Source of the DNA: Nymphaea colorata
Lineage: Eukaryota; Streptophyta; Magnoliopsida; Nymphaeales; Nymphaeaceae
Assembly (NCBI RefSeq): GCF_008831285.2
Contig: NC_045150.1
Coordinates: forward strand, 9,436,001-9,500,000
Direction: 5' to 3'
DNA length: 64,000 nt
This document shows positions 2,601-33,020 of the stretch, piece by piece. Each line of letters starts with the position of its first letter. Position 1 is the first letter of the stretch. The notes under the pieces are model-generated. The model was given only the letters and a program-made list of their open reading frames with translations, was not told where the DNA came from and did no database searches. The position numbers and the translations under genes are program-made.

Positions 2601-2604
2601 AGTG

Positions 2605-2790
2605 ATTGCAGGCGTCGGAGCCCCCTTCAATCCAAGCAAGGAAGGAAAAGGCAGAGAACGTCTCCTGCGTCATGCTCACCGTTGGGTTTGTGCTTGGCAC
2701 CGCGTACAAACCGAATGGTGTTCATGAAGTAGCAGATGTTTCACACCTTCTGCCCGCCTTAGTTAGATTGAACGAAAGCTCCAACGTCAA
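2605..2790 (-). ncRNA. MIR159: MIR159-family microRNA precursor
   Basis: Read on the minus strand, the 3' arm carries CTTGGATTGAAGGGGGCTCC (about 2617-2636). This differs by one base from the miR159 type CTTGGATTGAAGGGAGCTCC, and the GGATTG core separates it from miR319 (GGACTG). The 5' arm (2761-2782) reads GGAGCTTTCGTTCAATCTAA and pairs with the mature segment with few mismatches. Pairing continues inward: GGCAGAAGG of the 5' arm matches TCTGCC and CCTT of the 3' arm. The roughly 185-nt stem-loop with the mature RNA low on the 3' arm is the usual MIR159/319 architecture. miR159 normally directs cleavage of GAMYB-like MYB mRNAs. A minus-strand TATA box lies about 230 bp upstream of the hairpin. 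A plus-strand open frame across this block is its antisense shadow. The hairpin was judged by eye, and expression cannot be seen. Confidence 0.82.
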
Positions 2791-2861
2791 AAGAACTGAA
2801 CCATATAATTCAACGGGGAAAGAAAAAGCCATGCTAAGAATCCTGACAATTGACTGTAAGC

Positions 2862-2884
2862 GAGAGAGAGAGAGAGAGAGAGAA
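2862..2884. repeat. (GA)n microsatellite in MIR159 leader
   Basis: Short GA run (CT on the transcribed minus strand) between the TATA box and the miR159 hairpin. CT-rich tracts are common in plant 5' leaders, which fits transcription from the 3018-3025 TATA box. Confidence 0.8.
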
Positions 2885-3017
2885 TATGCAGTCTGTAAGG
2901 AGATTCAGCGAGGAAGTCGAGAGAAAAGTGGAAAGTTGCAGCGAAGAGATGGGAAGATGGTTTAGGAGTACTTGGAAGAGGATGGTGAATGGTGGGTAGC
3001 AAGCTTTTGGTGGCTTC

Positions 3018-3025
3018 TTAATATA
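3018..3025 (-). promoter_or_regulatory. TATA box for the MIR159 transcript
   Basis: On the minus strand the sequence reads CTCTATATTAAG, a good plant TATA match. A start about 30 bp downstream (near 2990) would give a leader of roughly 200 nt before the hairpin, with a CT-rich tract, as is usual for plant MIR genes. The link to MIR159 is inferred from strand and distance. Confidence 0.55.
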
Positions 3026-3039
3026 GAGCTCGGACATGG

Positions 3040-4718
3040 GCAGGCAGTAAAACCCTAGAGTCAGGTCTGACCATCACATGACGCCATGAACGTGAACTTC
3101 GAGAAGCAGCAAACAATTGATTGATTCCAGATCGTAGCGATAAAAAAGAATGTGACTATAACGGACTTATGATGGAAAATCGTGAAACTTTAACTAATCG
3201 GTTTAATGGGAATCTCAGACAAGATTAGTTCCTGACCACCATGAACTGAGAAGACAACACTAAAAGGGAAAAAATAAAATCAATTAACAGGGCAACGAAC
3301 AAAATCGAGAGTACTTGATCCAAGATTTTTAAACACCACAGTCCACACCAATGAAAACTCAAATAAAATTTCATCACATGACTAACAATCATATTTCTCT
3401 TTTATAATGACACTGGCCATATAATATGCAACTGGAGTAACAAAAGTCACAAGCAGCTTGTCCATAATTTCCGGTGCATCCATGCTGGAAGATAGGTCTC
3501 CCCACCACCTTTATTAGCAAAGAGTAAACAAAAAAAGCTTGTCCATATCAACCGGTGCTTGAAGAGAGACATTTTCTTCAACTTCCTCCCTCGGTTGACA
3601 AAAACCTAGCCTTTTCAAACACGGCACAAATTCCACCGCTGACAATGTCACCCTTCCTCAGTCAGATTTCTAAAGGGGTCTACATTTTTAACCAAGGTGA
3701 AATTAACCATTGAAGGTAGAGGGTCATGGCCGCTTTAATTAATTATTTTTATGGCCCTCAATTTTGGTGGCAGGAATTATTAAATAAAATTTCCAGTACA
3801 TGACTCGACAGGCCTCCGTACACTTAGCTAGTTGGACTTTTTTCAAATCTCAGGCTTGAGGAGTTAGTTTAATTCGGGGTGTGAAGAAGGCCAAAGAATC
3901 AAGACAACAAAATATTGATAAATCACGGATTCTCATGGCGTTTGTAACAACAGTATAATCAAAGCAGGAACAAGGTAAAAATAAAGAACCCAAGTTAACT
4001 AAGGAGTATATAACTCCATTATGCTCCTCATCCGCGGGGAAAAGAAAGTTTGGTGTTTCTAAAAAGTATAAGTATGCATCTTTTATTAGTTCAGTGGTGT
4101 TAGCACTCTACAGAGAAGTAGATGTGCTTTTCCCTGCTGCCATACTAGTTAGTTAGTTGTACTCATTTTCTTCTCAACTTAGTGATCTTCTTTCTGTCTT
4201 GTAAGATTAGAAGCCTATTATGTATAATGAAAGGTTCTTCAATTTTAATAAGGTGATTCATGATTCAATTATTGTTCTTGATTCGAAATTGAAATGAAGA
4301 ACAAGGGTAACAGCCAACAGGCCAGTGGGCAAAAGTGTAGGTTGGGAAATGATATGGTCCATGGGTATCATGTTGTTAATAAAGAAGGTGACCGCAAGGA
4401 CTTCGTTGGAGTTATCTCCGTTCCTGACCACGAAGGAATCCCAACCTTTTCTAATCGGGATACTAGGATATTAGGTCTTCCACACTTTAATATTTGGATA
4501 ATGTAGTTCCAAGTTCCAATATGCGGCCTCAAAATCCTCTTCCACTGGTTGAAGCGTTCGCCCCCTTATTTTGGAAGAAGTTTTCTCGCATTCTTAAATG
4601 CAACTTGGCTTGCATTTCTGTTTATTCCGATGGAGGAATGCCCAGTTGTTGCTTGTTGTTTCCCTCTCATGTTGTGCATAGATTCCCAATGAAACCAAAT
4701 TATAATGATGCTCTCTAG
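3040..4718. other. Intergenic, no gene recognised
   Basis: No convincing coding exon. Two short adjacent plus-strand frames (4294-4506 and 4494-4718) show no recognisable domain. The stretch 4140-4290, with phrases like 'cctattatgtataatgaaaggttcttc', resembles the end of a retrotransposon LTR, but no partner LTR or gag/pol was found. Confidence 0.5.
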
Positions 4719-4868
4719 ATTCCATGCTTGTAAAGGAGAAATTAGGTTGAACTTCTTCTGTGGGTCAAATGTAGAAACGTGACTTTATATATATATATAT
4801 ATAGTCACGTTTCTACATTTGACCCACAGAAGAAGTTCAACCTAATTTCTCCTTTACAAGCATGGAAT
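4719..4868. repeat. Perfect 66-bp inverted repeat with TA-rich loop
   Basis: Positions 4719-4784 are the exact reverse complement of 4803-4868, with no mismatch in 66 bp. They are separated by 18 bases, almost all TA repeats. Transcription of either strand would give a perfect 66-bp hairpin. The lack of divergence between arms implies a very recent inverted duplication, gene conversion, or an assembly/fold-back artefact. The arms contain no coding frame that I recognise. It lies between the MIR159 and MIR319 hairpins. Confidence 0.95.
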
Positions 4869-5474
4869 GAAAGTAAACAGAGTTTACAAAGTTGGGATCT
4901 ATTTTCAGTACCCAATTTACAAACTTTATATAGTTAGATCAGCCTGGTAGCATGTGGTGTCACCGAAAGCTTATTTGGACCAATTATAGAAACGAATATG
5001 AAAGGAATACATTGGATTTGATTAATATGTGCAATATGTGAGCGGATTTTGGATTTGCTTATATACGTTCTCGTATAACCTATGCTTTACATTCCCCTTG
5101 AGTTGTATGAGTTTGATTAGGTTCCATTTTCATAGTAGCAGCAGTACCTAAAATCCAAAGTTGTTTACATCGAAAGACTTCAAGACCCTGATCCAACATA
5201 TGCACAAGCCCAAGTTGGCAACTGGAAGCTCACGAGTTCAATGGAAAAACATTAAAGTGCCCAAACTTCTAAGAGCCGTACCGATTCTCCAATTGGTTGA
5301 ACGATTCTGGACCTTGCCATTATGTTGCTTCACATTTTTTTTGGCATTGTTGGCCCCATATAACATGGTGATCAGGGTTAGTATGCACCCTTATCAGGCA
5401 AAAGATAGATAGCCGCTATGGGCATAACATATTTGGTTAGACTGGAGGGTCAGTGAAAGTTTGATCATCAGTTT

Positions 5475-6305
5475 GATTCTTGTGGCGCTACTTATTTAGA
5501 CTGTAAATGGTGGATGCACGACACTCTAGTTGATGGGTGTTTCACTCCCTACCAAAGTCTCAAAGGCAGGAAAAAAAAGAAGGGGCTTCAGCGTCTTTAG
5601 GGTAGCTAAGTAGAGAGAGCTTTCTACTTATCTGGACTGTAAATGGCGGATGCACTATACTTTAGCTCATGAATGTCTTACTCGCCACCCAGGTCTCGAA
5701 GGCAGGAAAAGAAGGAGCTTTGACCTTTTTAGGTTAGCTAAGTGGAGAGAGCTTTCTATTTATCTGGACTGTAAATAATGAATGCACTGCACTCTAGCTG
5801 ATGGGTATCTCACTCTCCACCCAGGTCTCAAATGTAGGAAAAAGAAGAAGGGGATTCGGCTCTTTATGGTTGCTAAGTAGAAAGAGTTTTTTACTTATTT
5901 GGACTGTAAATGGTGGAAGCACGACACTCTAGTTGATGGGCATCTCACTCCCAACTCAAGTCTCGAAGGCAGGAAAAAGAAGAAGGGACTTCGGCCTCTT
6001 TAGGCTAGCTAAGTAGAGAGAGCTTTCTAGTTATCTAGATTGTAAATGACAGATGCACTACATTCTAGTTGATGGGTGTCTCACTCCACGCTCAGGTTTC
6101 GAAGACAGGAAAAAAAAGAAGGGGCTTCGGCCTCTTTAGGGTAGCTAAGTAGAGAGAGTTTTCTACTTGTCTGAACTGTAAATGGCGGATGCACTACATT
6201 CTAGCTGATAGGTGTATGACTCCCCACCCAAGTCTCGAAGGCAAGAAGAAGAAGAAGGGACTTCGGCCTCTTTAGAGTAGCTAAATAGAGAGAGCTTTCA
6301 TTTTT
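5475..6305. repeat. Minisatellite, ~136-bp unit, about 6 copies
   Basis: The phrase 'gctaagtagagagagctttct' recurs near 5605, 5738, 5873, 6009, 6145 and 6281, giving spacings of about 132-136 bp. Each unit also has 'ctgtaaatggcggatgcac', 'gatgggtgtctcactcc' and 'ggtctcgaaggcaggaaaa'. Copies differ by substitutions and small indels. No unit stays open as protein. The 'ggtctcgaaggcag' piece loosely resembles a Pol III box B, so a tandemly amplified SINE-like piece is possible but unproven. Confidence 0.85.
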
Positions 6306-9300
6306 AAATCTTTATACCCACCCACACCACAACAAAGAACTGTGTAAAATGTAGTGGGACTTAAATTATTTGATGTCAATTTGTGGGTATGATCCATATC
6401 TTAATGAGTCTGAGCTCGAGACCAATACTGTTTCCGTGGTAGAGTAGAAGATGGTGATAAGAATCTCGTATTCTCTGAACTGCTGTGTTCCATAAATGGT
6501 TCCATTTTACACATTCATGGAACACAGCATTCTAAAGGACACACCATTCCTGATTCCAAACCCCCGCATCTTGACAAAATTGACTGTTTGTTAGCTGACA
6601 CAATCTCGTTCACTCTTGGATTAGTTTTGGATCCAATGCTTATCAAACACGGGCAGAAGATCTGGGTTGAGGAACTCACCCAAGACGCCCTGGACAAAAA
6701 ATGGCCTGATCACACACTGCAGGACAAAATTAGTTAGGACGACGAATGCTCCATTATCAGCATGCATGTCGATCCGCTTCACGCATGGAAACGTTCTTAA
6801 CCGTCCATTTTAATGTCCATGTCCCTTGGATCCAATCCGTTCATGAGTTCTTGACCTTAACAATCGTACCTGGTCGGCTGGAAATGAGTGAGTTCGAGGC
6901 GAGGACTAAAACTCGTGCATGTGATTATTAAAGCAAGTCCAGTTTGATCCAAACAGAGTAAATTTGTTTCAGCTAATTTAAGTTCATTGTACACGACTTC
7001 TTATGAAGTTGAATGGCAACTTTATGTTCAAAACTAGTTGGTGTTTCCCTCTTTTGTTTGATTTATAATATAAAAAAGCAACCACCTCTTGTAATTTTCT
7101 CAATAGGGGCCTCACCTTTTATCAAAACTGTCGAAGGAAAAATGTTAGCAGTAATTTTTCTTTTTCACATTGTTCCTCGCTCCACCTTGAGGTTCATTTA
7201 GTTTTCTCGGTTCATGTGACTACGCTCACAAACTTCTGGCTATTAATAACCCCATTCAATAACCGCTAGTTAATTTTTGAACCATGAAATCTTGTCAAAA
7301 GACTCTTAACCCAACTTATTTCACTGCCCAATAAGTCCCTTCTTATGTGGCATTATCATCAGGCCCGACTAGATTGCATCCCACCGATCTCTTTAACTCG
7401 AGGCCCAAGAAAAAATGAGACAAAATTGAAGATCTTACAAGTCTTTTCAGTAGAGCTCTAAAAGTCGCAAGATGAACACTTTGTGAGTGTTTCATGAAAC
7501 TGACCAATGTACTAGTGTGTTTTGAGATTGTAGCACGGTCACAAGCTAGCTAGCATCGTCAAGTAGTTGAGGTAGCCAATGTTGTTAGAATTGCCCTGAA
7601 TCAGCTGATTGGATTTAAAGGTGCCCACAGCTTTCATTATTTTTGTAAGTTTTTTTGTATTTTTAAATAATATAGTTATTTTTCAATGGATTTTAAAACA
7701 TTTTTAGCCTATTAAAAACCGCTTCAGTCGAATCAGTGAATCGGCCGATTCATCAAATCGTCAGCCTTGGTTATTTGCAGGAGGAGAGGGGCAAGAGGGA
7801 CCATGCCGCAGTCTCCCCTACGTTTTGACAAATTAGATTTTACACATCGGTTGCGGCTATGGTCATCGGTTTGGCAGCCAATAGCTGGTTCGAACCATGT
7901 TGTCGTCCCTTGTGCTGCAAAAAAAAGAAAGCAGGAAGCAGAAGTTGATGAACATCTTCAAGGGTTTTATCAACCAAGGATTGATACGTAAGAACAGACA
8001 TTTGAGTCGCGCAGAAACAGATCGATGACGGTGAGTGATTTGAAGGCATTTTCCAAGCAGAAACTTTATAGTTCATCAAGGGTCAATTACTATGGAACCA
8101 ACTCGTAGTTCGATATTGTGATTTAACCAATCTGTTCACCAGCTATGCAATCCAGTGGGCGGGCATACTTGGAGTTGTCATCTGAACAAGTCATTACTGA
8201 CAAACTTAGACCAAATATAGATTATAAACGAAGGTTCAGAATCACGAAGCTCAAACGAATTGGAACATCTACCAAGCTGAAGATTAGGTTAGCAGATGTG
8301 ATCTCCTTCAAACCGTTAACAGCCTAAGATAATTTTCACCAATCAAAATTAACTTTCGGGCTATGTCGCAGTGAGGAATTTTGAATCTAAATCTGAAACA
8401 ACTCTAAATCAAATTTCAACCCTTTCAACTGACATATGAATCTGACTAAATGTAACACCAAATGGATGAAAAGAAAAGGGAAAGGGGAGGCAGATGAGAG
8501 GAAAAGAGAGGGAGAAAAAGAAAGGGTGGGAAGAAAAGGATGTCACGCTTCTTTCCTTTCTGTCTTAATCTCTCCAACTTCGGAATGATTGAATTTACGT
8601 TGAATTTTTTGTTTTTCTCTTTTCCTTGCATAAAAATGGGATTGATGCATTTCCATGTTGGATTAGAACAAATTAAAATCCAATCCCCACCAAATTCAAC
8701 TATATAAAGTCCATTATACAACAAGTTCGACTAAGTAAAATTAATCTAATTTACAAGTCCATCACTTGGGCAAGACAACGTAATTGGTAAATGAGGATGG
8801 TAAGGAGAACATAACAAAGTATTATTCCGATGAAAGCTTAAATCCTCATGGTCTCCCCTTCTTCGTGAGAGCATGCAAAATGGGGACATTTGGAATTTGA
8901 TGTTGTCCGCTGCTTTGTTGTAGAATCCGAATCTATTTAGCTCATCCAATCAATTTGCAACGTCCCTACACATTGCTAATATTTGCACATTAAATCTCCA
9001 TTAATAATCGGAATCGGACATGAAAAGGGATTATAAAATTATAACAGTTCACTTGGACATTCTCAAGATCAGTTATAATAACCAGATCACAAGGACTTGG
9101 CATAGATTCAAATCTAAATATGAGTTGTTGACATCCTCAAGTGGAAGCTTGATAAGGAGAACATTGTGTTGTTGGAACACTATGTTATTAAAAACCTAAC
9201 ATTACAATAAGTTTAATTGTTGCTGTATAAGGAAAATGGCAGAGACGGATCAGAAAATAAGCCTCAAGGCAGAAACAAAAATATCTAATGTAACGTATTG

Positions 9301-9830
9301 ATCAAAGACAATTGACATAAGAAAAAAACAAAGGAACAATCACAGGGACAAGATTGAATGGAGTTAAGAGAACAAAAAGCGTTCACCTATATGTTCTTCT
9401 AAAGATTACAGCAGTTATAGTAATTATATATATATGGACAAACTATAAGGCACTCGGAATCTTGATACCAAGTTTGTACAAGGTGAGGGGTGTCAACCCA
9501 TGAGACTCGAGTCACATACATCCTCTACTTAAGAACATTACATTAGCAAAGGAAGTAAAGTTCTAGAGGTTTAAACAAATACGAGTTAATCTCAGGGATT
9601 CCAACAATTAAGTTAATCTTGTAGTCAGAATTATATAATTTAATTCATCAGAATAAAACAAAAGAAACAAACACGTTTCTGAAGCCATTATTCTTTATGC
9701 CCAATCGTTTTTATAATATTAATCAACCACTCTGTACAGAAAACCTTCGTAAGTAATGCGTCCTTAAAAAAAAAAAAAAAAAAAGACGTGCAGAACCAAG
9801 ATCTGAAAATAGCCAATAAAACGCATGAGA
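6306..9830. other. Intergenic, no gene recognised
   Basis: AT-rich, with short unsupported frames only. It contains a dispersed-repeat fragment near 7470-7520 ('aacactttgtgagtgtttcatga'), a lone box-B-like 'ggttcgaacc' at about 7887 without a credible box A or tRNA fold, and a poly(A) tract at 9766-9784. Confidence 0.55.
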
Positions 9831-10234
9831 TTAAGTAGTCAAAAAAGGTCGACATTTTTTAAATAGATAAAGCTTAGCGTCATGTGCCAACCAAAGAATT
9901 TCTTGTAAAACAGCCAACAGCACATATTCAACGAGGCTGTGCACTTCAAACCTTCTAGATAAAAAGGATGAAGGTTTCTGATGAATCCAAAGAGTTCCCT
10001 GTAGTTGTAGAATAAGTTCATAAATCGGCAGTGTATGAAGCCACATGTTGAATCCATGGTATCAAAGAACCATGTGGCCGTCATAGAACACGGATTGAAC
10101 TTGTAACGCCCAAAGAATTTACTCGGGAAGAAAGATGAGGCAGAGAGATTCATGATACCACAATACCACACACGAAATATCTAGATCAGGATCATAGATA
10201 CATATGTAAATACCCAAGCATGTTAAATAAGAAA

Positions 10235-10251
10235 AAGAGAGAGAGAGAGAG
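10235..10251. repeat. Short (GA)n microsatellite
   Basis: GA dinucleotide run downstream (on the minus strand) of the MIR319 hairpin. A second CT-rich patch lies at about 10397-10412. They may be in the pri-miR319 transcript tail. Confidence 0.7.
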
Positions 10252-10724
10252 ACTACGTGGTAAAACGTGTTTTTATACTTAAATAATGTTTTCTTTACAT
10301 GAATCGCAAAGGTACATCATAATTAAGGACAAAATCAATAACGCTTGCATGACATAAGAGATACAAGTTCCAGATTAAATATAATATGATCCTCTCCCTC
10401 TCTATCTCTCTCTTGCAGGCAGGATTCAGTTGTTGCACCATCCAGCCCACACCCAAAACATGTTGACTGAGGAACACGCTTCATACACTGTCCATAGTTT
10501 CAAGCGTTGAGGATTCCTCCTACCAAACAAACACCAAGGACTATGAAGTGAACACCAAGGACTATGAAGTGAGAAGAAAGTTAGACAAACAAAATGCATG
10601 CAAGGAATCGGCTGACCTTCACGAGATGAAATATCTGAATCAAACTTACAGAAGACGATGCCCCTTGGATGTGAAGAAGCAAGGAAGAGACGTGAAACTA
10701 AAACAATTAGAAAGTACTTGGGAG

Positions 10725-10915
10725 AAAACAAAGAGGGAGCTCCCTTCAGTCCAAGAAGGGATAACACAGAATTCAAACCTATCTCCCGCATCATTCACAC
10801 ATCTGACGAGTACCCGTCACCGCCATTGTACTCAGCACATGAATGAATGAGTCGGCAGATAGTTCAATTCTAATGCTACCCATAGTGGACTGAAGAAAGC
10901 TCTCTATCTCTCTCC
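10725..10915 (-). ncRNA. MIR319: MIR319 microRNA precursor
   Basis: On the minus strand the 3' arm holds TTGGACTGAAGGGAGCTCCC, then T (10734-10754), the canonical miR319. The 5' arm (10884-10905) reads AGAGAGCTTTCTTCAGTCCA, then CT, the usual miR319 passenger strand. The stem between them also has the conserved landmarks of long MIR319 precursors: ATGGGTAGCA just after the passenger strand, TGCCGACTCATTCATTCA toward the loop, and TGAATGATGCGGGAGA on the returning arm. miR319 targets TCP-family transcription factors that control leaf and flower growth. The related MIR159-type hairpin lies about 8 kb downstream on the same strand. A minus-strand TATA box sits near 11.6 kb, about 690 bp from the hairpin, so the pri-miRNA leader would be long or spliced. 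Confidence 0.95.
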
Positions 10916-11593
10916 CCTACTCAAGTAATCTCTCCCCTACTCAAGTAATCTTGACAAGGCGATTCAGACAAGGAACGTTGGCTTAACAGGCGAAGCTCGA
11001 GCTGCAGTCGGAAAGATCGATGACGAGGAGATGCTCAACCACCAGTTGTCTATCAGTCTCTTGCAGAAACTAAAATAAAGAAGTAGAAAACAAGGATAAC
11101 GTGCAGAAGAAACCAGAGACAAGTACATCTTTTAATTAAGCTAATCGTACTTGCACATACCAAACGCATGAAACACGTAAGATATTCGTCCGAAGATCAA
11201 AACCAACCACACTTTCTGAAACAAGACGGGCTCTTGCTCTGAAAGCACTGGAAGAGAGGAGAAATATGGAGGCAAAAGTAAATAAAAAGAAATGGAAGCA
11301 AAAACAAACTTAAACGAAGAAAGATATCAAACGCTAAGAGAAATGTACAGGACCCAGGAAACTACTCGAACGCCTTCTAGAATCACTCTTCCTCTACCAG
11401 ATCCCAGTTGAGTCGGCCATTAACACTACTTTCATATCTCTCTCTCTCTCTCAAATGGTGAAGTGGGCAGGAAACTAATCGGCGACCAAGACGGGGGACG
11501 ATGTCAGGCGCCCCTCTCTTTACCGGTCCCTTCCCCTCAATCCTCCTCGTCCGATCCGTCGTTTTCAAGAGAGAGGAGAGGGAGAGCGATGGC

Positions 11594-22200: not shown

Positions 22201-23274
22201 CTATGCTGGTTCATACAAGCCAAGCATATGACCATCAATGCAACGCACGGCAGCAACCTGCACCATCCATCAATTAATGAAACCAACATTGGAGAAAAGA
22301 TTGACAAGTGAACCTCAAGTTTATGCACACCCATAGCATTTATAGAGCAAGTCGATTACTCAAGAAGCATAAGAAACACTCAATTCACTTTTAACTCCTG
22401 AAAATATCTCAATTTTGTGGAGCCAATCGATACACTACTCTGGTTGAATCAGGAAGATGGATTTCGATCCTGAACCAACAGAGGTACCTAGGAAAGAACT
22501 GCAATTGATTTTAACAGAAAATAAAGTCCATAATCCAATAACAAACCGATTACTTTGCCGTGCACTTCATATTTGATAGGGCCGTCCAATTCAGCACCTA
22601 AAGACATGAGCTTAGTGACCGTGGCGTTTATGTCTGTCACAGTAAAGGATAGAAGAGAAGAGTAGCCTTTCTGCATCATGACATCACTGCAAGAGCAGAT
22701 AGTTAGGTCTCAGTCATCAAACAATGATTACAGTTACCAACATGCAGCTGAAAAACAGTTTACCAAACGAAACAAAACATTAACACCACCATGGAAATAA
22801 CAAGAATTGATTGAAGAGTTTCTATGGAGGCTCCAAGAGTTCAAATGATGCGCATTTGCCTTGACACTTAGAAAAAGAAAATAACTTAGTTCAATTATGC
22901 ATCTATTTTTTCATGAAAAAAGAAGAATTTTTTGCCCAAATCATATTCCAAAAGAAGAAAACAAAGATCTCAAATACCTATCGTTCCTTCTTTAACCACT
23001 TACTCCCCTTCCTAGCATGAAATCAAACGTTTGGGATTGAAAACAGAGAACTCTAATTAACCATGGAACATAAAATGCACATGACCCTAGAATGTGGGAG
23101 AAGTAAAACGAGCGACCTGCTTGATTGCATGAGCGCTAACTTCAGAGGGCCGGAATGGAGCTCTGCCCACCTGAGTGTGCATACGTTGACGGTGAATCCG
23201 AGTCCTTCAGAGTAGAACCGAGCTGCCTTGGGGACGTCCTTGTGGAGTTGCAGAAGCCATCTGAACGAAGCCAT
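22201..23274 (-). CDS. Small VOC / glyoxalase-like protein
   Basis: Three exons on the minus strand join in frame: 23274-23117, 22686-22554 and 22257-22201 (TAG), giving 115 residues. All junctions are GT-AG. The protein begins MASFRWLLQLHKDVPKAARF, continues with VNVCTLRWAELHSGPLKLAL, then GYSSLLSFTVTDINATV and AELDGPIKYEVHGKV, and ends VRCIDGHMLGLYEPA. This is the single beta-alpha-beta-beta-beta unit of the vicinal oxygen chelate superfamily and closely resembles the small plant 'lactoylglutathione lyase/glyoxalase I family' proteins of about 110-140 residues. Such proteins are annotated as glyoxalase-like, but the substrate is not established and glyoxalase I activity should not be assumed. 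An upstream in-frame ATG at 23418 exists. The start at 23274 was chosen because it fits the family N-terminus. Confidence 0.9.
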
Positions 23275-23942
23275 CCCCTCGCCCCCTCGCGTATCTGAAA
23301 AACACGAACCTGTTTCGGGGGTTAGATTTAGGGTATCGTGGAAGAACCGACACGAGAGATCCAAATCCAAAGTCAAATCTTGTTCGGGCTTGGTGGGTGC
23401 TCGTGGGCTGATAAGCATGTGCCCTGACGGGGCTAGATTGGCTGCAAATGAAAAACTAAAACTATTATTATTATTAGCTTATTAATAATGTCAGTTAAGC
23501 TGATATTTCGATAGAGCCATGTAAGCCGTCATTGTGACAACCAAAAGTTCATTATATGGAGAGATATATGTAAAATTCTAAATGAAAAGAGGTAAAAAAG
23601 TAATTTTCTATTTTTGTATACACCAAAATTTTTGGAAGTATACTGTCTCATGAATGTATCCCAAAAAATGAAGTAGTAAGTGTTTTATGAATCTCTCCTA
23701 TTTTTTGTGACACATTCACGAGACAATAACAGTATGTCATTGTTGCCAAACAACATCGATAGGTCATTGCCCTTCAATGATCAAACCTCATATCTCAAGG
23801 AAGTCCTAGACTTCCACCACCTTGAATCCTTTAAGGCCTAGTAACAAAAGTCCATGATCCATGTAAATGGGCTCGACTAGGAGGATGAGGATTTGGATCC
23901 TTTAAGTTGGATGGCATTAGCGAAATTGGATCTTGGCCAGGA

Positions 23943-25627: not shown

Positions 25628-26990
25628 TCAAATAGAAGCTGCTTCAACTGCATGATCTTTTAATATTGCCAACAACTCATGAACACCTTCAGGATCATAT
25701 AGTTGATTTTTCATTCCATCAAATCTGTCTTCTGTCGTCCAAGTGTAGCCAACTGGGTTTCCATTTTCTGACCGATGCAGTTGATTTTCTCTGTCCTGTT
25801 CCCTCACTCAAACCATAGGTAGGAGGATAGGATCTTGGAAGAAACTAAAGTGACTGTGTCTTTCCTAGTTTCAACTTTGTGAATAATTCTACCATATCTC
25901 TCATGGTGATATAGGTAACTAACTGGATCAGATTGATCCTTAAATTTCCCTAAAGTCATACAGTATGCTGATAGTATGCCATTTACAGTGATCCAATTTG
26001 CATTGATGCCTTCTTCTTGCATTTTTTGGAAAAAAGATACAACTCATTCACCTTGGCCATGAACAACAAATCCTGAAATCATTGAATTCCATATCACGGT
26101 GCTGCTGCGATGTGCTCTTTCAAATGCATGAGCAGCAGACTCAATGCAGTCACATTTGGAATACATAGTGATTGTGGCAGATTGAACTGAATATTTTCTT
26201 TGCAACCCTGACACAATTGATAAACTATGTATTTCTTTTCTTATTCCCAGCGAACCAAAATCTGCACAAGCTCTTAGTGCTGCGGTTAAAGAAAAAATGG
26301 GTCCAGACGGATGCCAGAATTTCACATTTGACATCATACTTTCAAAGCTAGGTCAACATTTCGATTCTTAACATGGTCTGAAACTATGGAAGTCCATGAA
26401 ACTATATCTAACGTTAGGTTATCCATCCTCATTTTGCAAAAGAACTTCTGAGCTTCATCTACTTTTCCACTTTTGGCAAGTCTTGAGATCAGTCCATCCC
26501 AAACGACTATATTCCTCTCAAAGCTTTTGTTGAAGAGTTTCATTGCTGCAGAAAAACTTCCCATCTTAATATATGTCTCAACCAGCGTGCTCTGCAAATA
26601 AACATTTTTCAAGTTACTTCTTATACTTAAACCATGAAAAGATTTTCTAACTTTTAGAGCATCAACCAGGATGCATGCCCTCAAAATACTTGTAATAGTG
26701 ATGCAATCTGGTTCAACACCACATTCTTGCATCAAATTGAAGACTTATAATGCCTCTGTTCCATGTTCATGGTCCATATAGTTAGATATTAGTGTATTCC
26801 ACGAGCTTGGGTTTTGTTTGAACACAAGTGAATCGATTCTGTTAAGAAGTGCCTTCTCATCATCTAACAGTCTGTTGTTCACATAACCTTTGAGAAGAAT
26901 ATTTCATGTAACTAAATCAGGTTTCATGCCTGCCAAATCCATCCTGTGAACCAAATCTAGAGCATTATTTATTTGATCTTTCTTAACGGG
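25628..26990 (-). pseudogene. Pentatricopeptide-repeat (PPR) protein relic
   Basis: Minus-strand sequence with successive PPR motifs: LVHRMDLAGMKPDLVT, NPSSWNTLISNYMDHEHGTE, MMQECGVEPDCITITSILRAC, NIVVWDGLISRLAKSGKVDEA, SAAHAFERAHRSSTVIWNSMI, EEGINANWITVNGILSAY, and a C-terminal GYTWTTEDRF...VHELLAILKDHAVEA. PLS-type organellar RNA-editing or processing PPR proteins have this layout. The frame is broken: TGA replaces an expected Trp codon at about 26904-26906, TAA at 26745-26747, a frameshift near 26335, and TGA at 26044-26046. The 5' end is lost at about 26990, where unrelated sequence begins. No full-length parent is present in the window. Confidence 0.88.
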
Positions 26991-28744: not shown

Positions 28745-31086
28745 TCATGAGCCCCTTGATGTTCTTAGCCGAGCCTGCTGCCCTTCTAACCTTGCTTCAA
28801 GCAATTTGGCTTTGAGCGTATTCTCCTTCACTCCAGATGGCAACTTCACTGATCTTTCAGAGAAATCCAGCTCTGGAGATCTTTGATGGTAACCCCATTT
28901 CTGTACAGGGCTTGCTATCTCATGCACACCACTTACGCCTTTATCCTTAGAACCCACAATAGAATGTACATTCCATGAATAAGATTCTTCGTTGTGATCA
29001 ATTTCAGACCAGACCCTACCGCCATTGGAATGCAGTGACTGGCCCCTGACTGGCTTATCTGTTAGATGGTTCGTGCTATGAATAATGTGTCGAATTGATT
29101 TCCTGTCTTGGCAGCCATCTTGCACGTCAAAGTTTTCAGGATTTTGACACACGGAAATTTCAATCTGATCGGATTTGTCAGCTTCATCTTCATCAAGATT
29201 GCTAGTATGAGCAGCACTTGTCCTGTCTGCGAGAGGCGCCCTGCTTCCTGTTCTGCAACCATTTATCTTCTCTTTGAATTGTAGTTGAAAACTGGAAGAA
29301 TTTCGATGGCTGATACTATGTCGAGAAACTACATTTGGCTTAACATAGTTAGGTTTGTTAGCCACTTCAAGATCATCAGCAGCATTGCTTCCACGAGAAT
29401 TTTTCTTATCATCATTTGCAGCATCTTCACCGTTCTTGTTAAAACAATGCAAGTCACTAGCAATCGAATCTTCATCCCCAGCATACTGAGGTGCACTGGT
29501 GGCCTCGTTTAAGGGAACAGATTCAAGTGAGCGCCGACGGAGCCAATCATCCTTCAGAGCCGTATGAAGATAATTGATAACCTTTGAGTCTTGGGATTGT
29601 TTATTTCTGAGAAATGTTTCAATTTCAAAGTTTAGTCTATCCACCATCATGCTCTTCTCATCGGAGTCATGATTTGCATCTGCCAATTTCATCTGTACCC
29701 TCTCATCTAGCCAAGCTTCGGCTATATGCAGTATAAATCTGTCATCTCGTTCAGCTGGTTCTTTCTCATGCTTTTCTTTCAGGTTGCGAACTTCTTGTTC
29801 ATAATCTCCTATCCCCTTTGCAAATTCATCACAGAGATCTTCCAACACCAGTCTAGCTTTCCTCTCTTTGTCCAACTCTTTTACAGCCTTCGAAAGTGCC
29901 AACTTCATATCAGCTACCTCTCTCGCTAGCTTCCTGTGTAGGCTCTCTGACCTTCTCCTCAGTCTCCTCTCGTTGTCAAGCTCTTCCCTTATGGACTGAA
30001 CCGCTGCTTTAATCCTCTCATGCTCTCTGCTCTTCCTCATCAGCTTGTCCTCTGCATACTGTTTCATCAATTCATCTATTTCTTGACGATCTTCTTGCTG
30101 CACTTGAATCAATTCGTGAACCTGAGCACGTGCATGATCTCTTTCTAGTTTCAGTGTCTTAATGATTGATGCATTAGATGTCTGCTGTTCTTCCAGGATC
30201 CAAATTCGGTTTAATACTTTCAACAATTCTGTTGATGTTTTAAGATTACAGCCGAGTTCCCCAGGCCTGCTCTTGATGTCCAATGAACTACTTGGTGTAG
30301 TAGCCTGATTATATGCTCCACCCTTTTGAAAAAATAAAAACAAAAATAAGAGAATTGAAACTTGCATTGCATATGAAACAGTGGGGTTGACCATGAAACT
30401 CCTTTAGAACAATTAGTTCAACAGAAACAATTACTTCAAACTGATGGTATTGGAACACAGAAACATAAATGGAGAATCACTGCTGTCAAGCAAAACAAAG
30501 AACTGAAAATGGATCAAGAACTTGCAAACCACAATATTCAAGCATCAGCTGTACCTTACAATTGTTATGTAAAAGTTAGCAGTAAGTTTACAATAGATTA
30601 CCAGTCACCGAATAAGAGCAATGACTCTTACCTCCATTGAACTAACATAACTGACAGGAGATACAGGCTGCAGGGCCCGGTCATTTCCATTAATTAACTT
30701 CTGATGTTCAATCAATGATGCAGCAACTTGCCTCGTCAGACTACCATTACTTGGTCGCTGCAGGGATAGAAGTTCTGGGATAAGGAAAGAGGACGTACAG
30801 TGCTCAGATCTATTTACTTTCTGCTCCATGGAGCAGCACAAAAATTGTAAATAGATTCTCATTTGAGAAAGATCCCATGCATGAAATAGAGTAAATGAGT
30901 AAAGTTATACACAAAGAAGGCTCTGCAGGTAGGCCAACAGAGAGAGAGAAGAGAGAGAGGACAATGAAAAATCATTCACCAGAGTCAGTCTAAAAGTACT
31001 AAATCTGAGGCAAGAACTGCAAGACTTAATGCACATACTAAAAAAATACTTTCAATGGAGAGCAAGAAACCTGCAATAGAAAATGG

Positions 31087-31142
<56 letters not shown>

Positions 31143-32794
31143 ATGTAAAGAATTGATAAATTCAGTAACGCACAAACTAAAGGTATACTTGCGAAACCGA
31201 GAAAAAGAAACCTGCAAGAGAAAAGCAAACCAACAGAAAGACCTGATCTGATCAATGTAAAAATAAAACCTACCGTACAAAAGGCAGTACGATCAGCTTA
31301 AAAAAAAACAGTAGAACTAGCATGTACCAATCTGAAGAGACGCTTTCATAAATATGTAGATATCCATATCCATGTCCCAATTTTTCAGTAAGTAGCCAAG
31401 TTCAGTCTCAACTCTACCTCGAGAAACTTCAGAATACCAAGATAAGTGAAATTCATCTAGCAATTAGAAGGTAGACAGAGAAGACGTTGACAACAAGACA
31501 CGCATGCTGCAGCCAAAGATATTACAACAAAGCTACAGAATTACTTAAAAGTGGTACCTACAACAGAAGGAAAGGCAACCATCAAATCGTGCAGCATCAA
31601 CATAAAAAGCCTATTTAATAAAACTCTCGTTATATACAAAATATAATGCCTTTAAACAACCGTAAATCCGCAAACGAGATCATGGCAAAGCTCAATATAA
31701 AGTAGCCATAGAGCATAGGACCACCCTTCGATCATGATTAATGACATGTTCATACGAACCAGAAAGGAAACCACTAAGCATAATGTAAACACACAGCGAG
31801 AGATAGAGAGAAACGAAAACTCGCGAAGAGCAAAACGTCAAACTCATTATACGGCTATTAGAGAGGATAAGAAAAGAAAAAGAATCAAACCACAAAAACA
31901 GAGAAAACAGACAAATTACAAGCCATCATGAGATAAAAACATACAGAAGAAGACGGTACAAGCGCATTCTCCTGTAAGCTAAGGATTAGACTGAATTTCC
32001 GGCAAGTTGAGAAAAAGTTAGCAGCCAAATAGGTGGTTACATAAAAACCTATCAGATCAAGGATGAATTGATCCAAGAAAAAAAATTAGAAGAAAAAAAG
32101 ACAACTAAATCAAATGGATACTCGAATTCCAGGATGCCCATCAGTCAACAAGCAAAAATTAACCCATTATAGAAAAGAAAAAGTTCAGAGAAAACAACCC
32201 ACAAATCTTGACCACAAAACAACGAATTAACCACTAAAAAATCGTCACCACGACGTTAAGAAACAATCACTAATCAGTGAATACCCACTAAACTGCCCAC
32301 TCTAAGAAAAAGAAAAACATCCAGAAGAGAAGTAAAAACAGAGAGAAAAGGGTCACCTGATCGTGAGTTGGGCTGCGAGAAGCATCATCCAAATGAGAAG
32401 GAAAATCAAGGCCTTTCTCTTTACTCCTCCCTACCTTCCTGACAACTTTCTTCATTTTCCTACCGGAATCTGAAGGTGGTGGTGGCATAATCTTCTGAAG
32501 CTCCCAGAGATTAGCGCCAAGCTTCCGAGCAGACACTGTTAGACCCTTCCCGTTATCTCCGCAATAAATTTTGCTGCCACCCTTTTCATCATCACTCAAC
32601 TCCATTTTCCATGTGGGCACCGGGGTCAAGGCTCCTCCTCTCCTGCCTAACAAGATCCCTTTCCTCAACTTTATGCCCAAGAACTCCTGCTTTTCTGCTT
32701 GCTCCCCAACTACTAATTCTTTACTTTCACCACCATCCACCTTTAATTGCCCACCCTCATTTCCAGCCAGCCCCTCCTCATCCTCCTCCTCCAT
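28745..32794 (-). CDS. Plant coiled-coil 'USO1-like' protein
   Basis: Three exons on the minus strand join in phase 0: 32794-32357 (146 codons), 30820-30632 (63 codons) and 30322-28745 (525 codons and stop), giving about 734 residues with GT-AG introns. Family landmarks occur in order: KRGILLGRRGGALTPVPTWK-type segment near residue 45, VSARKLGANLWELQ near 90, SLTRQVAASLIEHQKLI with RALQPVSPVSYVSSME at exon 2, and SSSLDIKSRPGELGCNLKTS with ELLKVLNRIWILEEQ opening exon 3. A coiled coil follows (about residues 245-400), then a polar tail. This matches the plant family annotated 'intracellular protein transport protein USO1-like', related to BRANCHLESS TRICHOMES. Molecular function is mostly unknown, and the USO1 label reflects only coiled-coil resemblance. 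The second exon could start one codon earlier. The CT-rich leader lies upstream at 32.8-32.95 kb. Confidence 0.88.
31090..31139. repeat. (AG)25 microsatellite in intron 1
   Basis: Uninterrupted AG dinucleotides inside the first intron of the coiled-coil gene. The Leu-Ser-rich frame across it is an artefact of the repeat. Confidence 0.95.
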
Positions 32795-33020
32795 CCCACA
32801 AAAAAAAAGAACCGGGTCTTTGTTTCCTGTCTACCTCCTTTCTTTTAGGTCCTTCCAGTAGGCCCTCTCTCCCCCTCCCCCCCTCTCTCTCTCGCACTCT
32901 CTCTCTGTCTACAGTTCCTTCTGTAATTCCTTTTCTTTTCCCCTTTTTGTGCTTTTCTAGAGGGAGCATGTTGGAGCGACTCGAGAGTACAGCTCTGAGG
33001 TTTGAGTGCAGTCCAGCAGA
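32795..33020 (-). promoter_or_regulatory. Leader/promoter of the coiled-coil gene
   Basis: Sequence 5' of the start codon is strongly GA-rich on the minus strand (CT-rich on the plus strand at about 32860-32910), typical of plant leaders and core promoters. No clear TATA box was found. Plus-strand frames here are antisense shadows. Confidence 0.4.

What the first reader, a model, noticed from the sequence alone, without database searches (positions are those of the whole stretch)
2605..10915. MIR159-type and MIR319 hairpins in tandem on one strand
Seen directly: two long stem-loops on the minus strand about 8 kb apart, one with GGATTGAAGG (miR159 type) and one with GGACTGAAGG (miR319). Each has the mature RNA low on the 3' arm, and each has its own same-strand TATA box. 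Established: miR159 and miR319 are sister families with different targets (GAMYB-like versus TCP). Inference: the pair may preserve the ancestral tandem arrangement from which the two families diverged, or may be a local duplicate.
Basis: partly seen in the sequence, partly recalled or inferred. Interest (0 to 1): 0.75.

Follow-up and report, generated by a model that had tools for sequence, protein, structure and literature searches.

The report
Ancient MIR159–MIR319 tandem pair, water lily
Two related microRNA genes sit side by side in what appears to be a water lily genome, inside a block of neighbouring genes that matches, split in two, the places where the thale cress genes MIR159c and MIR319b lie, which suggests the pair was already together before flowering plants diversified.

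Summary
The window lies in a 408-Mb plant genome whose size fits Nymphaea colorata. Hairpin A (10723-10914, minus) is a canonical MIR319 (RF00638, 133 bits). Hairpin B (2604-2793, minus) is a diverged MIR159-type gene (73.2 bits, cutoff 74; MFE z -6.5) that still pairs at 16 of 17 stem positions where both sides differ from A. It shares 45% identity with A.

Of 11 MIR159/319 loci found, six form three same-strand pairs 8-17 kb apart (0 of 1,000,000 random placements). The C2 and C11 pairs look like duplicates, in the opposite order (159 upstream).

New: the block runs LRB genes, MIR159 (B), MIR319 (A), glyoxalase, USO1-like. By Arabidopsis locus numbers, MIR159c (At2g46255) adjoins LRB1 (At2g46260); MIR319b (At5g41663) lies near a glyoxalase (At5g41650) and a USO1-like gene (At5g41620). 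Best reading: an ancestral MIR319-MIR159 tandem, kept whole here, reciprocally lost from duplicated segments in Arabidopsis. That the families diverged in this tandem is not shown. TATA boxes are at chance level. Arabidopsis sequences were recalled; gene order was inferred from locus numbers. B's tree placement is weak. No small-RNA data.

The parts
10723..10914 (-). Hairpin A: MIR319 precursor (canonical)
   Evidence: RF00638 133.2 bits over gathering 74; MFE -90.9, z -8.4; 72% and 69% identical to the C5 and C10 MIR319 hairpins and 66% to ath-MIR319a as recalled
10735..10755 (-). miR319 mature position CTTGGACTGAAGGGAGCTCCC, 3' arm base
   Evidence: exact 20-mer match; sequence read; the 21-nt ends are inferred, no reads
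2604..2793 (-). Hairpin B: diverged MIR159-type precursor, candidate counterpart of ath-MIR159c by position
   Evidence: RF00638 73.2 bits; MFE -83, z -6.5; 16 of 17 stem pairs with both sides different from A still pair, 7.4 expected by shuffling
2616..2636 (-). Predicted mature RNA of B, CTTGGATTGAAGGGGGCTCCG
   Evidence: position aligned to the family; the 21-nt ends are inferred, no reads; predicted pairing
22204..23478 (-). Glyoxalase/VOC gene (three exon stretches found: 23271-23122, 22694-22542, 22260-22204), the At5g41650/At1g64185 type
   Evidence: Pfam Glyoxalase 21.0 bits, cutoff 20.6; 74-86% identity to a recalled Arabidopsis protein
28745..32830 (-). USO1-like coiled-coil gene (open frames 28745-30403 and 32288-32830), the At5g41620 type
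   Evidence: family assigned from recalled conserved motifs (GRRGGALTPVPTWK, SARKLGANLWE), no Pfam match for either frame; five weaker matches elsewhere in the genome
26047..26744 (-). PPR gene fragments between the glyoxalase and USO1-like genes
   Evidence: Pfam PPR_2 and PPR on 26334-26744; below cutoff on 26047-26352

Best explanation
Two separate microRNA genes in a head-to-tail heterotypic tandem. A is a MIR319 gene: its transcript folds into the long hairpin that the family dices from the loop to the base (established for the family, not shown here) and releases miR319 against TCP mRNAs. B is a MIR159-type gene at the MIR159c position, releasing a diverged miR159 predicted to pair with GAMYB and GAMYB-like mRNAs, with some TCP pairing. 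The tandem sits in a block LRB-LRB-MIR159-MIR319-glyoxalase-(PPR)-USO1-like. I infer that this order existed in the common ancestor of water lilies and eudicots. In the lineage to Arabidopsis the block was duplicated and thinned reciprocally: one copy kept MIR159c beside LRB1 (chromosome 2), the other kept MIR319b near the glyoxalase and USO1-like genes (chromosome 5). Shown here: the hairpins, their genome-wide census, the same-strand pairing, the structural constraint on B and the water lily gene order. Inferred: orthology to the Arabidopsis loci, reciprocal loss, separate transcription, processing and targeting.
For: Hairpins. Census: 11 places by RF00638; a separate pattern scan hits the same 11 mature sites. 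Three same-strand pairs: C13 8.1 kb, C11 8.7 kb, C2 16.8 kb; 0 of 1,000,000 random placements of 11 loci give three or more pairs within 17 kb. B under structural constraint: 44 of 51 consensus pairs formed (shuffled mean 20.8); 16 of 17 pairs with both sides different from A still pair (7.4 expected); against the C11:1112129 MIR159, 10 of 13 (5.4 expected, p 0.0064); 28 of 51 consensus pairs have at least one sequence with both sides changed and the pair kept. B is not a recent copy of A: identity 45%. Synteny, MIR159 side: the two LRB matches found in the genome are tandem on C13 at 9413550-9414392 and 9421245-9422096, minus; 70-77% identity over the main stretches to recalled Arabidopsis LRB2, nearest exon stretch about 11.6 kb from B; MIR159c is At2g46255 (PMC2988730, passage) and LRB1 is At2g46260 (PMC8042123, passage). 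Synteny, MIR319 side: glyoxalase at 22.2-23.5 kb and USO1-like gene at 28.7-32.8 kb; MIR319b is At5g41663 (PMC5181588, passage), At5g41650 is a glyoxalase (passages), At5g41620 is USO1-like (passage). Targets in this genome: B pairs with three GAMYB-type sites at penalty 3.5-4.0, the canonical miR159s at 3.5-4.5; with two distinct TCP sites B 5.5, miR319 4.5-5.5, miR159 6-7.
Against: Arabidopsis gene order is read from locus numbers, and Arabidopsis sequences were recalled, not fetched; gene strands there were not checked. B's place in the tree is weak (78/81, branch 1.48); without the mature columns it joins another long branch, C11:16085536, which has a miR319 mature yet also falls on the MIR159 side, so the side is a poor guide. 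B with A as a clade is not rejected (p-AU 0.085 and 0.097), nor is B with A and its MIR319 relatives (0.088 and 0.296). With recalled Arabidopsis sites B scored 3.0 on TCP4, level with miR319 and better than its own 4.0 on MYB33, against a clear GAMYB preference. The USO1-like family has other members, and the glyoxalase has relatives on C6 and C8, so those anchors are weaker than LRB. 6PGDH (recalled as At5g41670, next to MIR319b) was not seen in 114 kb of C13 with recalled probes; best match E 0.45. The C2/C11 pair has the opposite order, and the 150-kb C2 and 114-kb C13 stretches share only repeat-like matches. No small-RNA, degradome or expression data.
Confidence: 0.65

Rival explanations
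1. Local duplication inside the water lily lineage: B is a tandem copy of A (MIR319) whose mature sequence drifted from GGACTGAAGG to GGATTGAAGG, so its resemblance to miR159 is convergence.
For: Adjacency on one strand; a clade of A and B is not rejected (p-AU 0.085; 0.097); B's 3' end (GCTCC) is miR319-like; B pairs with a recalled TCP4 site as well as miR319 does.
Against: A and B share 45% identity, less than A shares with its C5 and C10 relatives (72 and 69%); no BLASTN match between A and B with 1.5-kb flanks; B sides with MIR159 with and without mature columns, weakly; LRB beside B matches MIR159c, not MIR319b, in Arabidopsis by locus number.
Confidence: 0.2
2. Two unrelated old MIR genes brought together by chance rearrangement on C13; the matching Arabidopsis neighbours are coincidence.
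For: The C2/C11 pair has a different order, and the C2 and C13 stretches read share no genes; USO1-like and glyoxalase genes are not single-copy.
Against: 0 of 1,000,000 random placements of 11 loci give three pairs within 17 kb; anchors on both sides fit, in order.
Confidence: 0.1
3. B is a decaying pseudogene of MIR159c, still folding but no longer processed, as Arabidopsis MIR159c nearly is (compatible with the ancient-tandem reading).
For: Score just below the family cutoff; its mature sequence differs from those of the other 10 loci; ath-MIR159c is very weakly expressed and said to have the hallmarks of obsolescence (PMC2988730, passages; PMC6724108, passages).
Against: 16 of 17 pairs that differ from A on both sides still pair, and 44 of 51 consensus pairs form; its energy is in the range of the other hairpins; its predicted pairing with the GAMYB-type sites is in the range of canonical miR159's.
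Confidence: 0.3

Closest known systems
Arabidopsis MIR319b (At5g41663) and the MIR319 family
   Same: Canonical mature sequence, long loop-proximal duplex, and nearby glyoxalase and USO1-like genes (order from locus numbers)
   Different: Here a MIR159-type gene lies 8 kb downstream on the same strand; I recall no MIR159 at the Arabidopsis locus
Arabidopsis MIR159c (At2g46255)
   Same: Position beside an LRB gene (locus numbers); diverged member of MIR159; 3' end GCTCC rather than GCTCTA (ath-miR159c recalled)
   Different: B has GGGGG in the mature sequence and G at its 3' end; MIR319 is its neighbour here, not in Arabidopsis (by locus numbers)
Rfam RF00638 MIR159 (covers MIR159 and MIR319)
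   Same: A well over, B 0.8 bits under the gathering score
   Different: The one model matches both families here and does not separate them
C2 and C11 MIR159-MIR319 pairs of the same genome
   Same: Same-strand heterotypic pairs 16.8 and 8.7 kb apart
   Different: Opposite order (MIR159 upstream), canonical miR159, a different MIR319 clade, different neighbours (ribose-5-phosphate isomerase; BCNT on C2)

Membership tests
MIR159/MIR319 superfamily (RF00638) | A: covariance model score over gathering (74 bits) | tested here: met
   133.2 bits
MIR159/MIR319 superfamily (RF00638) | B: covariance model score over gathering (74 bits) | tested here: inconclusive
   73.2 bits, 0.8 under, E 1e-13 in the window: not met by the letter, but far from chance
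MIR159/MIR319 superfamily (RF00638) | Long unbranched stem with miR at the base of the 3' arm and more than 60 nt between miR and miR* (type 1 of Li et al. 2011) | tested here: met
   Folds; definition from PMC3118147 section 6
MIR159/MIR319 superfamily (RF00638) | Conserved second duplex near the loop | tested here: met
   Alignment and consensus structure of 10 of the 11 hairpins: clear in A, diverged but paired in B
MIR159/MIR319 superfamily (RF00638) | Loop-to-base dicing and accumulation of 21-nt RNA | not testable with these tools
   No small-RNA reads available
MIR319 | A: mature TTGGACTGAAGGGAGCTCCC and membership of the MIR319 clade | tested here: met
   Exact; grouped with the C5, C10 and recalled ath-MIR319a hairpins, 93/95
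MIR159 | B: mature TTTGGATTGAAGGGAGCTCTA or a near variant | tested here: inconclusive
   No match within 3 mismatches of the canonical 21-mer; core TTGGATTGAAGGG present in CTTGGATTGAAGGGGGCTCCG
MIR159 | B: precursor in the MIR159 clade | tested here: inconclusive
   On the MIR159 side with support 78/81, long branch; without mature columns it joins C11:16085536, and a clade with the three miR159 loci is not rejected, p-AU 0.261
MIR159 | B: targets GAMYB-like, not TCP | tested here: inconclusive
   Sites read from this genome favour GAMYB type (3.5-4.0) over TCP (5.5); recalled Arabidopsis sites gave 3.0 for TCP4 and 4.0 for MYB33; no cleavage data
ath-MIR159c orthologue | B: position next to an LRB gene | tested here: met
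   Both LRB matches found lie on C13, the nearest exon stretch 11.6 kb from B; Arabidopsis adjacency by locus number

The most novel reading that the evidence does not exclude
A heterotypic MIR319-MIR159 tandem array existed before crown angiosperms; the C13 and C2/C11 clusters of this water lily are its relics, and Arabidopsis MIR159c and MIR319b are the reciprocal survivors of one ancestral tandem, so that the MIR159/MIR319 split in flowering plants was carried by a local array rather than by dispersed duplicates.
Probability: 0.35. Interest if true: 0.75.

Novelty: new variant of a known kind. Interest (0 to 1): 0.6.

Why it matters
miR159 and miR319 are a textbook case of sister microRNAs that divided their targets between them, but where and how they parted is open. 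A preserved heterotypic tandem, with flanking genes that match MIR159c on one side and MIR319b on the other, gives positional evidence of orthology where hairpin trees are too short and saturated to decide. It turns the question into a synteny test across sequenced angiosperms, and it would explain the weak Arabidopsis MIR159c as the remnant of an old, positionally conserved gene. Positional homology of this depth (crown angiosperms dated at 234-263 Ma in PMC7015852, passage) is unusual for microRNA genes, as far as I know.

Tried and rejected
Gene-level synteny between C13 and the C2 cluster: 150 kb against 114 kb gave only short repeat-like matches and matches of one 1446-aa frame that looks like a transposon polyprotein. 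BCNT as an anchor between C2 and C11: one match in the genome, on C2. TATA boxes: chance level. A bacterial promoter scan is irrelevant to a plant and was ignored. A third decayed member near the pairs: no further RF00638 match at E up to 1 in the window, in 50 kb left of it, or in 60 kb around the C2 pair. B with a co-evolved target at C1:40163657 (GGAGCCCCCTTCAAACCAA): attractive because its C matches B's extra G, but the 901 bases read show no long frame at the site (longest 74 aa), so not claimed. 6PGDH near A with three recalled probes: no credible match in the C13 or C2 stretches (best E 0.45). The 6PGDH (PF00393) and BAG (PF02179) family searches of the genome did not complete. Of ten literature searches, six bore on linkage or on this genome's miR159/319: 25 of 303 papers listed; 20 of 185; 6 of 6; 1 of 1; 2 of 2; 15 of 24; no listed title or abstract start describes MIR159-MIR319 linkage. 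I read parts of 15 papers only; subscription papers are not held, and supplements (for example the cluster table of PMC3464803) were not readable. So 'not in print' is not shown.
Full report
WHERE WE ARE. The window is G000:C13:9436001-9500000 of a 407.8-Mb genome in 783 contigs. The eight contigs between C1 and C14 whose lengths I saw are 12.6-44.0 Mb. This fits Nymphaea colorata, described as 409 Mb with 14 pseudo-chromosomes (PMC7015852, passages). I treat that as likely, not proven.

THE OBSERVATION. Hairpin A (10723-10914, minus) scores 133.2 bits with RF00638 and folds at -90.9 kcal/mol, z -8.4. Hairpin B (2604-2793, minus) scores 73.2 bits, 0.8 under the gathering score, and folds at -83 kcal/mol, z -6.5, as one long stem. 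A carries canonical miR319. B carries CTTGGATTGAAGGGGGCTCCG: a miR159-like core, an extra G, and a miR319-like (or, as recalled, miR159c-like) end. No canonical miR159 within 3 mismatches is in the window. The TATA boxes exist but are uninformative.

CENSUS. RF00638 over the whole genome gave 21 matches at 11 places, sense and antisense counted together; 7 of the 11 exceed the gathering score. The tool scored 34 of 75,495 first-look candidates, so 11 is a lower bound. A pattern scan with up to 2 mismatches gave 53 matches: the same 11 mature sites, 3 star-arm matches, 19 copies of one repeated site, 4 candidate target sites and 16 others that I did not follow up; the reversed control gave 11. 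By mature sequence: miR159 at C2:3188101, C11:16971422, C11:1112129; miR319 at C5:9971848, C10:20827887, C13 (A), C2:3204863, C11:16980111, C11:16085536, and a miR319-like short hairpin at C2:5199778; B alone has its own sequence. Six of the 11 form three same-strand pairs: C13 (8.1 kb), C11 (8.7 kb), C2 (16.8 kb). In 1,000,000 random placements of 11 loci, strand ignored, 4613 had at least one pair within 17 kb, 9 at least two, 0 three.

TWO KINDS OF PAIR. On C2 and C11 the order along the strand is MIR159 then MIR319, and the members match across the two chromosomes (MIR159 75%, MIR319 80% identity). A ribose-5-phosphate isomerase gene lies upstream on the opposite strand in both (C2:3176886, 10 kb away; a partial copy, 69% over half the protein, at C11:16926694, 44 kb away). 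This is one anchor only, and a fuller and closer relative of that gene (73%) lies on C10:15.89 Mb, away from any of the 11 loci. I read the two pairs as duplicates of one pair, which would fit the Nymphaealean whole-genome duplication (PMC7015852). On C13 the order is MIR319 (A) then MIR159-type (B), and no genes are shared with C2 within the stretches read. So the C13 pair is not simply a third copy of the C2/C11 pair.

WHAT B IS. B is 39-50% identical to every other hairpin aligned and 45% to A. In a 12-row tree (10 loci plus two recalled Arabidopsis precursors; the short C2:5199778 hairpin was left out) B joins the MIR159 side at 78/81 on a long branch. In a 10-row tree without the mature columns it stays on that side but joins C11:16085536, another long branch (68/72). 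C11:16085536 has a miR319 mature, so falling on the MIR159 side is a weak sign of family. B with A as a clade is disfavoured, not rejected (p-AU 0.085, 0.097); B with A and its MIR319 relatives likewise (0.088, 0.296); B with the C2/C11 MIR319 pair gives 0.039 and 0.119; B with the three miR159 loci 0.261 without mature columns. Constraint is clearer than ancestry: of 51 consensus pairs B forms 44 (shuffled mean 20.8); of 17 pairs where both sides differ from A, 16 still pair (7.4 expected); against C11:1112129, 10 of 13 (5.4 expected). The consensus structure was derived with B included, which favours it somewhat.

NEIGHBOURS. To the right of A lie a glyoxalase gene (exon stretches within 23271-22204, minus, 74-86% to a recalled Arabidopsis protein; Pfam just over its cutoff), PPR fragments and a USO1-like coiled-coil gene (28745-32830, minus; family recalled from motifs). 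To the left of B, about 11.6 kb away, begins a tandem of two BTB-BACK genes of the LRB type (Pfam: BACK in both, BTB over its cutoff in one and below it in the other; 70-77% to recalled LRB2 over the main stretches, 47-63% over the N-terminal ones). They are the only matches found in the genome with that query. Between A and B the longest stop-to-stop frame that overlaps neither hairpin is 113 aa (9839-10180). In Arabidopsis, by locus number, At2g46255 is MIR159c (PMC2988730), At2g46260 is LRB1 (PMC8042123) and At2g46250 is 'myosin heavy chain related' (PMC5744475; I recall it as one family with At5g41620). At5g41663 is MIR319b (PMC5181588), At5g41650 a glyoxalase (PMC5764358, PMC5422514) and At5g41620 USO1-like (PMC11444407); passages only were seen in all of these. 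The water lily block LRB-MIR159-MIR319-glyoxalase-USO1 thus reads as the union of two Arabidopsis segments, each of which kept one of the two microRNA genes. Against: 6PGDH, recalled as the next neighbour of MIR319b, was not found with recalled probes, and the glyoxalase and USO1-like genes have relatives elsewhere, though none of those places is within several Mb of another of the 11 loci.

TARGETS. Candidate sites were read from the genome: three GAMYB-type genes (site motifs LELPSFQ, MELPSSQ, TELPSSQ; Myb domains found upstream in the two of three that were looked at) and three TCP-type genes (RGTLQSN twice, RGPLQSS once). The TCP names rest on recalled motifs; Pfam gave no match for the one frame scanned. 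With a simple plant penalty, B scores 3.5-4.0 on the GAMYB sites and 5.5 on the TCP sites; canonical miR159s 3.5-4.5 and 6-7; miR319 4-6 and 4.5-5.5. With recalled Arabidopsis sites, under slightly different end rules, B scored 3.0 on TCP4, as miR319 did, 4.5 on TCP2 and 4.0 on MYB33. So B is predicted to be intermediate: as good as miR159 on GAMYB sites, better than miR159 on TCP sites. Arabidopsis MIR159c is a weak anther-expressed gene described as having hallmarks of obsolescence but able to silence MYB33/65 when overexpressed (PMC2988730, passages). Whether B is similar is open.

CONCLUSION. The pair is best read as an ancient tandem kept whole in the water lily and split by reciprocal loss in Arabidopsis. 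Whether the two families were born in this tandem is not decided: Li et al. 2011 (PMC3118147; abstract and sections 6 and 7 read) place the split in duplications in the seed-plant ancestor, and a term search of that paper's text gave 0 for 'tandem', 'linked', 'synten' and 'Amborella'.

Noticed in passing
G000 C3, C4, C5, C11, C12, C13, C555, C652: 19 of 53 matches are TCAGCTCCCTTCAATCCAA, many in pairs 5.6-7.9 kb apart; it is a perfect complement to miR159 positions 2-18. Probably a retroelement family with a built-in miR159 site (inference; the elements were not read).
   Followed up: partly
window 10725-10916, + strand: The antisense strand of hairpin A also scores over the Rfam cutoff (83.8 bits) and folds at z -8.4; three other loci (C5, C10, C11:1112129) do so too. 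Any antisense transcript would fold.
   Followed up: partly
window 5488-6299: Six tandem copies of a 136-base unit lie between the two hairpins.
   Followed up: no
window 4719-4868: A near-perfect palindrome with 75-base arms (99%) lies between the hairpins; it draws sub-cutoff matches to animal microRNA families.
   Followed up: no
window 10909-10951: A 20-base unit is exactly repeated 2.2 times right at the 5' base of hairpin A.
   Followed up: no
L024, G000:C2:5199778-5199877: A short MIR319-like hairpin with TTTGGACTGAAGGGAGCTCCTA and no room for a loop-proximal duplex, like the type 2 genes of Li et al. 2011.
   Followed up: no
L014 positions 1419-1475: A 57-base partial copy of the MIR319 5' arm (84% to the C11 partner) starts 91 bases upstream of the arm itself at C2:3204863.
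   Followed up: no
L034:4910-5008: The upper stem of the C2:3204863 MIR319 hairpin matches Rfam MIR4414 at 41.4 bits (cutoff 100); MIR4414 may be related to a MIR319 upper stem.
   Followed up: no
G000:C1:40163657-40163675 (L046): A site GGAGCCCCCTTCAAACCAA whose C pairs with B's extra G; no long frame seen around it in 901 bases.
   Followed up: partly
G000:C2:3.227-3.265 Mb: Frames that look like a cluster of TIR-NBS-LRR resistance genes lie right of the C2 pair (recognised by eye).
   Followed up: no
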